Shown piece after piece: positions 810 to 6,098 of a DNA stretch of 42,842 bases. Source of the stretch: Actinomycetota bacterium (lineage in GTDB: Bacteria > Actinomycetota > Acidimicrobiia > Acidimicrobiales > Ilumatobacteraceae); assembly GCA_017856115.1 (NCBI GenBank), contig JAFMFM010000014.1, positions 1 to 42,842 of the forward strand, read 5' to 3'. The position numbers and the translations under genes were made by a program. Numbering within the stretch: position 1 is the stretch's first letter; each line of letters begins with the position of its first letter. The notes under the pieces are model-generated. The model did no database searches, was not told the origin of the DNA, and was given only the letters and a program-made list of their open reading frames with translations.

Positions 810-1517
810 GTGCGAATCGTCACCGCGCACACCACGCATGACTGCGAAGTCGCGTGCGAGGTGTTCGACCGGGTCTGGGGTATGTCGGGGATGGTGTCCC
901 ACGAGGTCATCATTGCAACGGTGCACGCGGGTGGCTATGCATCCCTGGCGTGGGTGGGTGACCACGTCGTCGGCGCAAGCTGGGGATTTCTCGGTGCCGG
1001 CCGAACCCTCCACTCGCACGTCACCGGTGTGGTCGCCTCCCACAACTCCGTAGGTATTGGTGAAGCCCTCAAACGGCACCAATGGCACTGGGCCCGCGAA
1101 CGCTCGCTCGAGGCCATCACCTGGACGTTCGATCCGCTGGTTCGCCGCAATGCCTATTTCAATCTCATCAAACTCGGCGCGGTGGTCACCGAGTATCACG
1201 AAGACTTCTACGGAACGATCGATGACGGCATCAATCGCGGCGAGCACACCGATCGATTGATGGTTCGGTGGCAGGTTGCAGGATGCGACGGTGCGCAGCC
1301 AACTGGAGCGGTCGTGCGGATGCATCACGACACGCCGAGTCGTGACGGGTGGGCGATCGCGACCCCCGAAAACATCGAGGCGCTGCGCATCACCGACCCC
1401 GATGCAGCGCAAGCATGGAGAACCCGACAGCGGGCAGAATGGCGAAGGGCATTCTCGGACGAATGGAAGGTGGCAGGGCTGATGGCTGACGGTGGCTACG
1501 CCGTGGTTCGCGCGTGA
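810..1517 (+). CDS. GNAT-superfamily acyltransferase of the NSAR/MenC-linked type
   Basis: A 235-aa protein resembling the predicted GNAT acyltransferases (COG3375-like) often encoded beside enolase-superfamily MenC/NSAR genes. The N-terminal half has the GNAT-type core with VVGASWGFLG and, after it, SVGIGEALKRHQWHWARE, an acyl-CoA-binding-like loop and helix. GTG 810 is chosen because the conserved sequence begins there and a -10 box sits 7 nt upstream. Longer versions from 663 would read through the upp promoter region. The stop overlaps the next start (GTGA, 1514-1517), so the two are translationally coupled. Known for related pairs: the GNAT enzyme succinylates D-amino acids and the racemase converts them to the L form. 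Applying that here is inference. Confidence 0.75.
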   Translation: MRIVTAHTTHDCEVACEVFDRVWGMSGMVSHEVIIATVHAGGYASLAWVGDHVVGASWGFLGAGRTLHSHVTGVVASHNSVGIGEALKRHQWHWARERSLEAITWTFDPLVRRNAYFNLIKLGAVVTEYHEDFYGTIDDGINRGEHTDRLMVRWQVAGCDGAQPTGAVVRMHHDTPSRDGWAIATPENIEALRITDPDAAQAWRTRQRAEWRRAFSDEWKVAGLMADGGYAVVRA

Positions 1518-2620
1518 TCGAGGGCATCCGATTGCGCCGAGCGCATATCGATCTCGTGTCGCCGTTTCGAACCAGTTTCGGGGTGGAAACCACGCGCGAC
1601 CTGCTCTATCTCGAGGTGTTCGGTGGCGGAACCGCCGGTTGGGGTGAGTGCGTCGCGATGAGCGCACCGATGTATTCCAGTGAATATGTCGACGGGTGCG
1701 AGGACGTACTGCGTCGATTTCTGCTACCCGAGGTCGGGTCGGATACGACTGCGCAGTCGTTCAACGCAGCGGTCGAGGGCATTCGTGGTCACTACATGGC
1801 CAAGGCCGTGCTGGAAACCGCGCTATTGGACTTCTGGTTGCGTTGCGACCAAGTGAGCCTTGCAACGTTCCTCGGTGCCACACAGCCTCGCGTTCGATCC
1901 GGAGTGTCGGTGGGAATCCAGCCGAGCATCGACGACCTGGTTCGCGTGGTGCAGGGCTATCTCGACGATGGCTATCTGCGCATCAAATTGAAGATCGAGC
2001 CCGGTTTCGATATCGAGCCGGTTCGGGCCGTGCGATCCACGTTTGGTGACGGCCTGCTCTTGCAGGTGGATGCAAACTCTGCATACCACGTGTCCGATGC
2101 AGAACACCTGGCCAAGCTCGACGACTTCGATCTCCTGCTCATCGAGCAACCGCTGCCCGAAGAACAGGTTGCATCACACGCTCAACTTGCCAAGGTGGTG
2201 CGAACTCCAATTTGTCTCGACGAGTCGATTCTCTCTGCGGAGGTGGCACGCGAGGCAATCGACATCGGTGCGTGCAGCATCATCAACATCAAGCCGGCGC
2301 GCGTTGGCGGGTATCTCGAGGCCAAGAAGATCCACGATCTCTGCTTCGACAGGGGTATTGCGGTGTGGTGTGGGGGAATGCTGGAAACCGGCATTGGTCG
2401 TGCGGCCAATTTGGCGCTCGCAGCACTGCCTGGTTTCACGTTGCCGGGTGACACTTCGGCGTCGGCTCGCTACTTTCAGCGGGACGTCACGACACCGTTC
2501 GTGTTGCGTGATGGTCACCTCGATGTGCCGACGGGTCCTGGCATCGGCATAGATCCGGATCTCGATTACCTCGACTCCATCACCGACCGTATGGAGACCA
2601 TCGCTATCGCCCGCGGGTAG
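1514..2620 (+). CDS. menC: o-succinylbenzoate synthase / N-succinylamino-acid racemase family enzyme
   Basis: Enolase-superfamily (beta/alpha)8 barrel enzyme, 368 aa, of the NSAR/OSBS subfamily. All catalytic positions are visible: the KxK motif at K158/K160, metal ligands D186 (DAN), E211 (IEQP) and D236 (LDES), and the second lysine K260 in NIKPARVGG. The arginine three residues after that lysine (R263) is the position associated in this subfamily with racemase activity. Such enzymes make o-succinylbenzoate in menaquinone synthesis, racemise N-succinyl amino acids, or do both. The coupled GNAT gene favours the racemase role. No other men gene and no M20 hydrolase lies in the window, so the substrate is unresolved. 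The GTG start overlaps the GNAT stop. Confidence 0.85.
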   Translation: MIEGIRLRRAHIDLVSPFRTSFGVETTRDLLYLEVFGGGTAGWGECVAMSAPMYSSEYVDGCEDVLRRFLLPEVGSDTTAQSFNAAVEGIRGHYMAKAVLETALLDFWLRCDQVSLATFLGATQPRVRSGVSVGIQPSIDDLVRVVQGYLDDGYLRIKLKIEPGFDIEPVRAVRSTFGDGLLLQVDANSAYHVSDAEHLAKLDDFDLLLIEQPLPEEQVASHAQLAKVVRTPICLDESILSAEVAREAIDIGACSIINIKPARVGGYLEAKKIHDLCFDRGIAVWCGGMLETGIGRAANLALAALPGFTLPGDTSASARYFQRDVTTPFVLRDGHLDVPTGPGIGIDPDLDYLDSITDRMETIAIARG

Positions 2621-2639
2621 GGCACGCGAAGACCTGCGG

Positions 2640-3056
2640 TCAGCACGAGGCCGTCAGGCGAAAAAGAATGGCGGTTTCGGGATCGTGCTTGTCCCGACCG
2701 CGAAGTCGCGCCCACAACGTGGTGACCGTCCAATACACGCTGAAGGCCACGTAGACGGGACCGTACTTCTTGCCCACCGCCTTGCGCACGCGAACCGCCT
2801 CGTCGCCGGTTACCAGGCGAGCCGTTGCCGACAACACCGGCGCATCGTTCGATACCTTGCCGCTCATGTCGCACACTTGCACGGTCACCCGCGGGTTGCT
2901 TCGGATGCGCTTGACCTTGCCGACGTTGGTTTCGGTGATTACTCCGAACTCGTCGCCCATCGCAGCGAACCACACGGGCGTGGGAACGGGGCTGCCATCA
3001 CGTCGAAATGTCACGAGAGAGACGTACTTTTCGCGATTGCTGAGTGTGTTCGACAT
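2640..3056 (-). CDS. PPOX-class (probably F420-dependent) oxidoreductase
   Basis: A 138-aa split-barrel flavin/deazaflavin-binding protein of the pyridoxamine-5'-phosphate-oxidase-like superfamily. The N-terminal part has YVSLVTFRRDGSPVPTPVWF and ITETNVGKVKRIRSNPRVTV, typical of the actinobacterial Rv2061-like PPOX group that uses F420. The substrate is unknown. It lies about 50 bp downstream of tRNA-Pro on the same strand and converges with menC across a 19-bp gap. The ATG start is clear but lacks a strong ribosome-binding site. F420 rather than FMN dependence is inferred from the family and host group. Confidence 0.8.
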   Translation of the reverse strand: MSNTLSNREKYVSLVTFRRDGSPVPTPVWFAAMGDEFGVITETNVGKVKRIRSNPRVTVQVCDMSGKVSNDAPVLSATARLVTGDEAVRVRKAVGKKYGPVYVAFSVYWTVTTLWARLRGRDKHDPETAILFRLTASC

Positions 3057-3105
3057 CTATGCATCACTCCCGGCTGCAATGGGGTCTACAACTAGTGAAA
3101 ATCCG

Positions 3106-3180
3106 TCGGGATGGCAGGATTTGAACCTGCGACCTCCTGGTCCCAAACCAGGCGCACTAGCCAAGCTGTGCTACATCCCG
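3106..3180 (-). tRNA. tRNA-Pro(UGG)
   Basis: On the minus strand the 7-bp acceptor stem CGGGATG/CATCCCG closes. The anticodon stem CCTGG/CCAGG carries the 7-nt loop TTTGGGA with anticodon TGG, and the T-arm contains GGTTCAAATCC. Discriminator base is A; no 3' CCA is encoded. The first 10 nt of the tRNA overlap the end of the upstream PLP-enzyme gene, whose TAG stop is tRNA bases 8-10. Confidence 0.95.
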
Positions 3181-4358
3181 CTTCGTCTCAGGCTAACGCT
3201 GTCGAGTGCCGCAACAGCGGCGAGCAAACGTTGCACGTCATCAGACGTCACGTAACGCACCACGCCTGCACGCACCACGCCACCGGATTCTTCGAGACCG
3301 AGGTGTTTCACCAATTCGACTGCGTACGAACTTCCGGCCCATACGGCGATCTTCTTCGCGGCCAGCGACTCCGCCACACGATCCGGTGACATGCCCGACA
3401 CCGTGAATGCCACCGTCGGGGTTCGTGACTCCAGCGTCGGTGGACCCCAAACCGTCACATGCGGCATCGCCAGCAGTCCATTGAGTAGTGGCGCGAACAC
3501 GTCGCGCTCGTAACGCGCAACGTTCCGCATGTCTTCCTCGAGCAGGTGGCGTGCTGCGGCCTCGATGGCAGCGATGTTCTCGAGGTTGGGGGTACCGGTT
3601 TCGAATCGTCGCGGGCCGACGTCGTCGGCGGGCCGAACCTTGGCAACCGGTAGGGAATTGAGCAAGTCCGGCTCGATGCAGAGTACACCGGCGTGTGGGC
3701 CGTACCACTTGTAGGGGCTGGTGGCGAGTACGTCGCAGCCGATATCGCGGACACTCACCGGCATGTGTGGCACGAGATGCACGGCGTCAACGAAGACGCG
3801 TGCACCAACACTGCGTGCCAGTGCCACCACGGCTTTCACATCGGGCATCGTGCCGATGAGATTCGACGCTCCGGTCACTGCCACCCACTTGGTGTTCGGC
3901 GTGATCAGTTGCGCCAAAGCGTCCATGTCAAGTCGGCCGTTACTGGGGGAGAAGGGTGCAAGCACGTGTTCGGCCCCCGAGTCCTCGCATGCGATCCTCC
4001 ACGGCGACACGTTCGCGTCGTGGTCCAAACGTGTTCCCACCACACGATCCCCGGGTTTCAGCGTGTGGGCAACGGCTCGTGTGAAGGCGAACGTCATCGT
4101 GGTCATGTTCGCACCGAAGACCACGCCGTTTGGATCGGCATCAAGTAGACGTCCGACGACGTCGCGCGATCGCTCGAGCAGCGCGTCGGTGGCATGGGCT
4201 GCCGCGAACGCGCCATGCGTGTTGGCGTTGTTGCCGCTCGACGACCAATCGCTCGAGGCGCGAATCGCAACATCGACCATCTGTGTTCCGGCAGGACCGT
4301 CAAATCGGGCCCACTCGCCCCGTGCCCCCGGGAAGCGTTCTCGAACGGTGTCGGTCAC
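3171..4358 (-). CDS. cysteine desulfurase-like class V aminotransferase
   Basis: A 395-aa fold-type I PLP enzyme of the 'cysteine desulfurase-like' group (SufS/CsdA relatives). The N-terminus reads RFDGPAGTQ, the PLP-phosphate region lies around GANMTTMTFAFTRA, the cofactor aspartate is in VDAVHLVPH, and the Schiff-base lysine is in LATSPYKWYGPH. The loop where true group II desulfurases have RxGxHC reads WAGSSYAVELVKHLG and contains no cysteine, so persulfide transfer of the SufS type is doubtful. The GTG start at 4358 overlaps the upstream stop (GTGA), which fixes the start. The 3' end runs 10 nt into tRNA-Pro. Confidence 0.8.
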   Translation of the reverse strand: MTDTVRERFPGARGEWARFDGPAGTQMVDVAIRASSDWSSSGNNANTHGAFAAAHATDALLERSRDVVGRLLDADPNGVVFGANMTTMTFAFTRAVAHTLKPGDRVVGTRLDHDANVSPWRIACEDSGAEHVLAPFSPSNGRLDMDALAQLITPNTKWVAVTGASNLIGTMPDVKAVVALARSVGARVFVDAVHLVPHMPVSVRDIGCDVLATSPYKWYGPHAGVLCIEPDLLNSLPVAKVRPADDVGPRRFETGTPNLENIAAIEAAARHLLEEDMRNVARYERDVFAPLLNGLLAMPHVTVWGPPTLESRTPTVAFTVSGMSPDRVAESLAAKKIAVWAGSSYAVELVKHLGLEESGGVVRAGVVRYVTSDDVQRLLAAVAALDSVSLRRSGM

Positions 4359-4624
4359 TTGGCGCGTTTGGCAAGTTTGGCGAGACGCTTCTTTGCGCGT
4401 CCTACCGGAGCGAGATGGCGATGATCCAAATCGCTTACTTCGGTGCCGTCGGCGAATCGAACCCAATAGCGCTGCCACTGGAAACCGTTGGCCAGGATCA
4501 CACGCCCCTCGCTGCCGGCCGGCACGTCGGGAAGATCGACCGTGGTCACCACTTTGTCGCCGATTCGCAAATCAATCTGACCCTCGTGGGGCTTGGCAAG
4601 GGAATGTGGCTTCCAAAAAGGCAT
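4355..4624 (-). CDS. small basic SH3-like hypothetical protein
   Basis: An 89-aa protein beginning MPFWKPHS. It has a central beta-rich segment (GDKVVTTVDLPDVPAGSEGRV, then GFQWQRYWVRFADG) that looks like a small SH3/KOW-type barrel, and a very basic tail RAKKRLAKLAKRAK that could bind nucleic acid. The start at 4624 is preceded by GAGG only 2 nt away, so the adjacent GTG at 4627 is possible. A longer version from 4705 would run into the divergent tig promoter and is unlikely. Its stop overlaps the start of the PLP enzyme, so the two form an operon. The function is unknown. Confidence 0.65.
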   Translation of the reverse strand: MPFWKPHSLAKPHEGQIDLRIGDKVVTTVDLPDVPAGSEGRVILANGFQWQRYWVRFADGTEVSDLDHRHLAPVGRAKKRLAKLAKRAK

Positions 4625-4643
4625 CACCTCAGTATGGCACTTG

Positions 4644-4649
4644 TAGCCT
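4644..4649 (+). promoter_or_regulatory. -10 box TAGCCT, putative (near-)leaderless promoter of tig
   Basis: TAGCCT ends 9 nt before the tig ATG at 4659 and no ribosome-binding site intervenes. The same hexamer stands in the same place before ndk, def and hisG. Confidence 0.5.
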
Positions 4650-4658
4650 TCTTCACTC

Positions 4659-6098
4659 ATGCAAAGCACGGTCGAACAGCTCGAGGGCAACAAAGTCAAG
4701 GTCAACGTTTCCGTGGACGAGGTGGCGTTCGATCAGGACATCGAAGTTGCCTACCGCAAGCTCGCCCGACAGGTTCGCATCCCTGGATTCCGCCCAGGCA
4801 AGGCGCCACGTCGCATCATCGAGGCCCACCTCGGCGAGGACGGCAAGCGCGCCGCACGCGCACAAGCGATCGAGGATGCGGTACCCAAGTACCTCGCCGA
4901 AGTGGTCAAGCAGCATGACATCGACATCATCGCCACGCCGAAGGTCGACCACGTGCACGGTGCGGAGGACGTCAGCGGACCGATCTCGTTTCATTGCGAA
5001 CTCGAAATCCGTCCAGTGGTGTCGGTGGCCGGCTACGCGGGCTTGCGCGTGGAGCTGTCGAGCATCACGTCGACCGAGAAGGAGATCGACGAGGTCGTCG
5101 ACAACGAGCGCAAGCGTCACGGCACCCTCGTGGATGCGACGCGTCCGATCGCCACCGGCGATCAGGTGACGCTCGACCTCTCGGCATCCCGAAACGGCGA
5201 GTCGGTTCCGGGTCTCAACGTCGAGGCGTGGTTGTACGAGGTGGGTCGTGGCTGGGTGGCCAAGGGTTTCGACGACGAGCTCGTCGGTCTCTCTGCCGGC
5301 GACGAAAAGACGTTCACCGCCGTTCCCAACGGCAACGAAGACGAAGCGGATTTTTCGCTCAAGGTGGTGAAGGTGCAGGAATTGCAGCTACCAGAGACCA
5401 CCGACCAGTGGGTGTCCGATACGTTCGGCGAATTCGACACGGTTGCCCAGTGGCGCAGTTCCATCGGCGATCGCATGAACGAATCGCGTCTCAACCAGGC
5501 GCGCAACTCGGTGGTGGATCGCGTCACCGACGAACTTGCGAAGTTGGTCGACATCGACCTGCCCGAGGCGATGGTCGACGGAGACCTGCGGTCGCGAGTG
5601 CGCAACACCGTCGACACCTTTCAGCGTCAGGGAATTGCTATCGCCCAGTTCCTCCAGATCACCGGACAAACCGAGGAACAGTTCATCGAGCAACTGCGGG
5701 AGCAGTCTCGAAAGGCGGTCAGGGTCGACCTTGCGTTGCGAGCCATCGCAAGCGACGAGCAGATGGAAGCCGACGACGCGGACGTCAACGTGGAACTTGA
5801 GCGCATCGCCGTGCGCGCGAACGTGAAGGTCAAGCGCGTACGTTCCCTCTACGAAAAGAACGATGCGATCGGCGACCTCAAGGCGCAGATTCGAAAATCG
5901 AAGGCCCTCGAGTGGCTCGTGCGTCAGGTCACATACGTGGATACCGAGGGCAAGCCGATAGCGACGGACCTGTTGTTGGATGCGGGCGTGGACATCGATC
6001 CCACGGCCGATACGGGTGCTTCCGTGAACTTGGGTGGTGAATCCAACACGAATGAAGAGGCGACCAGTACGGTGGACGACGATTCCCCCGACGAATGA
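4659..6098 (+). CDS. tig: trigger factor (ribosome-associated chaperone)
   Basis: A 479-aa chaperone that binds ribosomal protein L23 at the exit tunnel and shields nascent chains. The N-terminal ribosome-binding domain carries the signature [16 protein letters not shown] at about residues 39-54. A PPIase (FKBP-like) domain follows around 150-245, where [12 protein letters not shown] is seen, then the helical C-terminal domain. It ends in an acidic tail ([11 protein letters not shown]), common in actinobacterial homologues. The ATG has no Shine-Dalgarno sequence but a TAGCCT box 9 nt upstream. clpP follows after 7 nt and clpX after that, the classical folding and proteolysis operon. Confidence 0.96.

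What the first reader, a model, noticed from the sequence alone, without database searches (positions are those of the whole stretch)
3171..3180. Stop codon of a PLP-enzyme gene lies inside tRNA-Pro
The co-directional gene ends AGC GGG ATG TAG, where GGGATGTAG is tRNA-Pro from base 2 to base 10. If both are on one transcript, RNase P cleavage at the tRNA 5' end removes the stop codon and yields a non-stop mRNA, so tRNA maturation would silence or destabilise the mRNA. Alternatively the tRNA has its own promoter inside the gene.
Basis: partly seen in the sequence, partly recalled or inferred. Interest (0 to 1): 0.5.

Follow-up and report, generated by a model that had tools for sequence, protein, structure and literature searches.

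The report
Lost stop codon, tRNA supplies one
In this bacterium one gene lacks the stop codon that its relatives have before the neighbouring tRNA gene and now ends ten bases inside that tRNA, which seems to have its own promoter; this looks like a minor, species-level accident rather than a new control mechanism.

Summary
The minus-strand gene (cysteine desulfurase-like PLP enzyme) ends AGC GGG ATG TAG; its TAG is bases 8-10 of tRNA-Pro(TGG), 5' end at 3180. The overlap is particular to this species. In 47 loci with this gene-tRNA order (window included), 46 stop before the tRNA, 2 to 325 nt upstream; only the window overlaps. The closest relative (93% identical) has TGA where the window has CGA (3183-3185). 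The next in-frame stop is the tRNA's U8-A9-G10, TAG in 21 of 36 tRNAs of this genome. The tRNA probably has its own promoter inside the gene: TAGCCT at 3190-3195, 9 nt upstream, matches a -10-like box before 25 of 34 other tRNAs, and is in 11 of 11 genus-level junctions although the reading frame through it differs. In 32 of 47 loci the enzyme's stop overlaps this box. The enzyme is under strong purifying selection (dN/dS 0.059), so it does not look silenced. Read-through transcripts cut by RNase P would be non-stop, but nothing found suggests regulation, and that model is already published for selB-selC.

The parts
3171..4358 (-). Cysteine desulfurase-like PLP enzyme gene (aminotransferase class V, TIGR01976); probable GTG start at 4358 (a guess; the longest frame starts at 4478); stop TAG at 3171-3173
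   Evidence: start inferred because many distant relatives align only from about residue 41-46 of P0001 (some start earlier) and because of the upstream sequence
3105..3180 (-). tRNA-Pro(TGG); mature 5' end C1 at 3180; CCA not encoded
   Evidence: ARAGORN; Rfam RF00005 69.3 bits; sequence
3171..3173 (-). TAG stop codon of the enzyme = tRNA bases U8-A9-G10
3183..3185 (-). CGA codon where the closest relative (L092) has the stop TGA, 2 nt before the tRNA; the differing base is at 3185
   Evidence: one search list of junctions
3190..3195 (-). TAGCCT, probable -10 box of the tRNA-Pro promoter, inside the coding sequence, 9 nt before the tRNA
2640..3056 (-). Co-directional downstream gene, PPOX-class F420-dependent oxidoreductase
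   Evidence: same order in many relatives
4355..4705 (-). Open frame of a possible small protein whose TGA overlaps the enzyme's probable GTG start (GTGA), suggesting an upstream partner in one transcript
   Evidence: not tested for homologues
4659..6098 (+). tig (trigger factor), divergent neighbour

Best explanation
A conserved gene order puts this PLP-enzyme gene directly before tRNA-Pro(TGG), so tightly that the tRNA's promoter lies within or against the end of the gene. The enzyme's extreme C-terminus is free to drift, so its stop codon moves among whatever stops lie there: an upstream stop, the TAG or TGA of the tRNA's -10 box, or a TGA just before the tRNA. In the window species none of these is in frame (CGA stands where the sister species has TGA), so translation runs four codons further and stops at the TAG that the tRNA carries as bases 8-10. 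Shown: the overlap, the one-base difference, the recurring order, the presence of the box in different frames. Inferred: that the box is a working promoter that makes most of the tRNA, and that the overlap has little effect on enzyme expression.
For: Of 81 loci examined (80 plus the window's own), 47 have the gene followed by tRNA-Pro(TGG) on the same strand; 1 of 47 overlaps, the window (two gaps corrected). Window and L092 differ by CGA against TGA. TAGNNT lies 5-30 nt before 20 of 34 other tRNAs of this genome against 1.6 in shuffles; TANNNT before 25 of 34 against 5.5. The tRNA-Pro box scores 10.2 bits, reached by 0.17% of 20,000 random 60-mers. TAGCCT is in 11 of 11 genus-level junctions. 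The enzyme's stop overlaps the box in 32 of 47 loci. dN/dS window-L092 is 0.059 over 375 codons; assigned amino-acid changes 4 (window) and 5 (L092).
Against: No transcript data. No common -35 element was seen by eye in the aligned list, and the sigma-70 scans found no promoter on either strand. 9 of 34 other tRNAs lack TANNNT and 14 lack TAGNNT in the range; one linked locus, L144, has none and in L145 it is 29 nt away. The loci are related, so counts are not independent; in the ungapped genus list no column is invariant, because L096 and L137 are shifted by one base. The direction of the change cannot be fixed: at the critical base, read by eye without gaps, L093 has C like the window, L092, L094 and L095 have T, L097-L100 have G; the ancestor may have had the overlap and L092 lost it. 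The C at 3185 could be an assembly error; no reads or second assembly of the species were seen.
Confidence: 0.85

Rival explanations
1. Enzyme and tRNA share one transcript, and RNase P cleavage at the tRNA 5' end removes the stop codon. The mRNA is left ending ...CGA AG without a stop, ribosomes stall and are rescued by tmRNA, and enzyme output falls as tRNA matures.
For: The geometry is right: the cut falls 7 nt before the TAG. No terminator-like site on this strand around the junction. RNase P RNA and tmRNA are in the genome. Precedent as a hypothesis: selB-selC.
Against: Overlap in 1 of 47 linked loci, so it is not a kept feature. Probable tRNA promoter inside the gene. Strong purifying selection on the enzyme, no excess of changes on the window side.
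Confidence: 0.06
2. Sequencing or assembly error: the species really has TGA at 3183-3185, like its closest relative, and there is no overlap.
For: Rests on one base in one assembly of 77 contigs; the closest relative has TGA.
Against: The base is C also in L093; the frame is otherwise open throughout.
Confidence: 0.07

Closest known systems
selB-selC overlap in Alpha- and Gammaproteobacteria (Mukai 2021, PMC8124441; abstract, found passages, sections 2.6 and 3 read)
   Same: Co-directional tRNA overlapping the 3' end of a protein gene; in Dyella/Luteibacter the stop lies inside the tRNA while close relatives stop before it; the same non-stop mRNA model was proposed there.
   Different: There the overlap is reported in diverse lineages and in many spans the whole tRNA, and the protein carries that very tRNA. 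Here it is 10 bases in one species, with no functional link known.
Same-strand overlapping genes formed by stop-codon loss (Fonseca et al. 2013, PMC3887535; abstract, outline and opening lines seen)
   Same: An upstream gene loses its stop and runs to the next stop inside its neighbour.
   Different: The neighbour here is a tRNA gene and the replacement stop is a common tRNA feature.
Mitochondrial tRNA punctuation and non-stop mRNAs (PMC9674279; passages read)
   Same: tRNA at the end of a coding sequence; RNase P cut decides the mRNA end; a tRNA fragment can supply a stop (MT-ND1).
   Different: There stops are completed by polyadenylation and transcription is polycistronic; here the tRNA seems to have its own promoter.

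Membership tests
Stop-loss same-strand overlap | Relatives have a stop before the neighbouring gene | tested here: met
   46 of 47 linked loci
Stop-loss same-strand overlap | Upstream frame extends to the next in-frame stop in the neighbour | tested here: met
   CGA for TGA, then AGC GGG ATG TAG
Stop-loss same-strand overlap | Loss of the stop is the derived state | tested here: inconclusive
   critical base is C in L093, T in L092, L094, L095, G in L097-L100 (by eye)
selB-selC type tRNA/ORF overlap with non-stop regulation | tRNA overlaps the 3' end of a co-directional ORF | tested here: met
selB-selC type tRNA/ORF overlap with non-stop regulation | Overlap kept across lineages | tested here: not met
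   1 of 47 loci
selB-selC type tRNA/ORF overlap with non-stop regulation | Processing yields non-stop mRNA that lowers protein | not testable with these tools
   needs RNA 3'-end mapping and tmRNA-tag assay
Independent tRNA promoter | -10 box at the position usual for tRNAs of this genome | tested here: met
Independent tRNA promoter | -35 element | tested here: not met
   none in sigma-70 scans; none evident by eye before other tRNAs of this genome either
Independent tRNA promoter | Transcription start just upstream of the tRNA | not testable with these tools
   needs 5'-end mapping
Mitochondrial tRNA punctuation | Stop codon completed by polyadenylation after the RNase P cut | not tested
   not expected in a bacterium; no RNA data

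The most novel reading that the evidence does not exclude
In this species maturation of a tRNA-Pro isoacceptor found once in the assembly feeds back on a PLP enzyme: each read-through transcript either gives a tRNA and a non-stop enzyme mRNA, or enzyme and no tRNA, because a ribosome at the stop would unfold the tRNA's acceptor and D arms.
Probability: 0.05. Interest if true: 0.5.

Novelty: new member of a known kind. Interest (0 to 1): 0.17.

Why it matters
It shows how a protein gene packed against a tRNA gene can borrow its stop codon from the tRNA's probable promoter or from the tRNA itself. U8-A9-G10 can act as a ready-made stop in one frame for genes that run into a tRNA. It is also a caution for gene callers that forbid CDS-tRNA overlap (from general knowledge). 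As a regulatory claim it carries little weight.

Tried and rejected
Non-stop silencing as the main reading: set aside because relatives stop before the tRNA and the enzyme is under purifying selection. Other tRNA-ending open frames in this genome as further examples (L015, L172): set aside as spurious. A sigma-70 -35/-10 promoter: none found, so only a -10 box is claimed. Polarity of the T/C change: tried by eye, undecided. Base rate of CDS-tRNA overlap in other bacteria: not measured.

Script errors mended: one search read minus-strand loci in the wrong orientation. One search mended that but began too far downstream in L032 and so showed an overlap of 10 there; one search finds the in-frame TAG, gap 44. 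In one search the stops of L137 (and its apparent copies L067, L069) and L168 were read in a wrong frame because the alignment is broken in those loci; one search shows the frames, gaps 8 and 12.

Full report
Observation. tRNA-Pro(TGG) lies on the minus strand with its 5' base at 3180 (ARAGORN 3105-3180; Rfam 3106-3180, 69.3 bits). The minus-strand open frame ends at 3171 with AGC GGG ATG TAG, the TAG being tRNA bases 8-10. The protein is an aminotransferase class V enzyme (Pfam E=9.7e-65) of the cysteine desulfurase-like group TIGR01976 (E=4.5e-110). The likely start is GTG at 4358: many distant relatives align only from about residue 41-46 of the long frame (some start earlier), and this GTG overlaps the TGA of an upstream open frame, 4355-4705. 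The start is a guess and does not bear on the junction.

Organism. The window is contig 32 of a 1.67 Mb unnamed assembly of 77 contigs. The nearest named relatives are metagenome assemblies labelled Ilumatobacteraceae or Actinomycetota, several with lake names, so a freshwater member of that family is likely (inference).

Junction in relatives. In the genus, 12 of 13 genomes have a match to the enzyme. A scan of named genomes gave 119 relatives, of which the best 80 were kept. The count rests on these 80 plus the window's own locus, 81 in all. In 47 of 81 loci tRNA-Pro(TGG) follows the enzyme on the same strand within 700 bases. In the other 34 none was found; two of these reach no stop (L107, L134) and some end soon after it (e.g. 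L108). The stop precedes the tRNA in 46 of 47, by 2 to 325 nt; L137 and L168 were first misread and have gaps of 8 and 12. In the genus, gaps are 2 (L092), 44 (L093), 20 (L094), 6 (L096), 7 (L095, L097-L100) and 8 (L137). Only the window overlaps.

One base. L092, 93% identical, reads AGA TGA AG before the tRNA where the window reads AGA CGA AG. In the window the frame therefore goes on through CGA AGC GGG ATG to the tRNA's TAG. Read by eye without gaps, L093 also has C at this base, L094 and L095 have T, L097-L100 have G. So the direction of change is open: the window may have lost a stop, or L092 may have gained one. Among the ten genus proteins aligned, the tail beyond the conserved core varies in length.

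Why the stop falls there. In this genome 21 of 36 tRNAs have TAG at bases 8-10. A frame entering a tRNA in this phase will often end exactly 10 bases in. Two other frames open for at least 100 codons do so (L015 and L172) but have no Pfam match at E up to 0.1 and codon-position G+C unlike that of the enzyme gene.

Promoter. TAGCCT lies at 3190-3195, 9 nt before the tRNA. Of 36 tRNAs, I left out tRNA-Pro(TGG) itself and one at a contig end; among the other 34, TANNNT occurs 5-30 nt upstream in 25 (300 shuffles: mean 5.5, maximum 11) and TAGNNT in 20 (mean 1.6, maximum 6); 9 and 14 lack them. A weight matrix trained on 24 of these sites, without tRNA-Pro, scores the tRNA-Pro box at 10.2 bits; 0.17% of 20,000 random 60-mers from the window do as well, and among 52 long open-frame ends in the window only 1 does, which by construction is the enzyme's own. 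The training sites were chosen to hold TANNNT, so the matrix leans to that motif. Across the 47 linked loci TANNNT is found within 5-30 nt in 46: at 8-13 nt in 45, at 29 nt in L145; L144 has none. In the genus TAGCCT is in 11 of 11 junctions though the enzyme's frame through it differs or has already ended, which points to a constraint on DNA and not on protein (my reading of frames). In the ungapped list no single column is invariant, since L096 and L137 are shifted by one base. In 32 of 47 loci the enzyme's stop overlaps the box plus two bases; in 12 it lies upstream, in L092 between box and tRNA, in the window inside the tRNA; L144 has no box. The sigma-70 scans saw no promoter on either strand, so the claim rests on the -10 box alone. 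TANNNT as an actinobacterial -10 form is recalled; only listed papers, none opened.

Is the enzyme silenced? Over 375 codons, dN/dS between window and L092 is 0.059 (dN 0.022, dS 0.372), and amino-acid changes that can be assigned are 4 on the window side and 5 on the L092 side. This is what a normally used gene shows; a very recent change would not yet show.

No terminator-like site was found on this strand, and the order tig, enzyme, tRNA-Pro, PPOX gene, menC-like gene recurs in the genus and in many further relatives; in some the PPOX gene lies further off, and in the more distant loci parts are missing. Read-through transcripts are therefore plausible, and RNase P (RNA found) would cut them 7 nt before the TAG, leaving non-stop mRNA for tmRNA (found, tag ANKQFALAA). 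That would be a cost of the arrangement, not evidence of control. In L092 the same cut would leave the stop followed by only 2 nt.

Known precedents. Mukai 2021 (PMC8124441; abstract, passages, sections 2.6 and 3 read) reports selC inside or partly overlapping selB, with relatives that stop before the tRNA, and proposes that processing makes a non-stop selB mRNA. Fonseca et al. 2013 (PMC3887535; abstract, outline and opening lines) explain same-strand overlaps by stop loss. Mitochondrial non-stop mRNAs at tRNA borders are described in PMC9674279 (passages). In the listings (15 of 23 papers shown; 11 of 11; 15 of 187; 1 of 1; 8 of 15; 12 of 128) I saw no bacterial paper on a stop at tRNA bases 8-10; apart from the three named papers only titles and abstract starts were seen, in an open-licence library, so this is a weak absence.

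Verdict. True observation, ordinary cause: a drifting gene end packed against a tRNA gene with, most probably, its own promoter. Interest 0.17.

Noticed in passing
window 4355-4358, minus strand: The enzyme's probable GTG start overlaps the TGA of an upstream open frame (4355-4705) as GTGA, suggesting translational coupling to a small protein.
   Followed up: no
L095-L100, L109, L111-L130, L135, L137, L138, L143, L168 (junctions): In 32 of 47 linked loci the enzyme's stop codon overlaps the tRNA's TANNNT(GA) box, so one sequence serves as stop codon and probable -10 element.
   Followed up: partly
G000, 36 tRNA genes: 20 of 34 other tRNAs have a TAGNNT box 5-30 nt upstream, without a -35 element evident by eye.
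   Followed up: partly
window 1514-6098: Order tig, PLP enzyme, tRNA-Pro, PPOX oxidoreductase, menC-like gene recurs in many relatives.
   Followed up: partly
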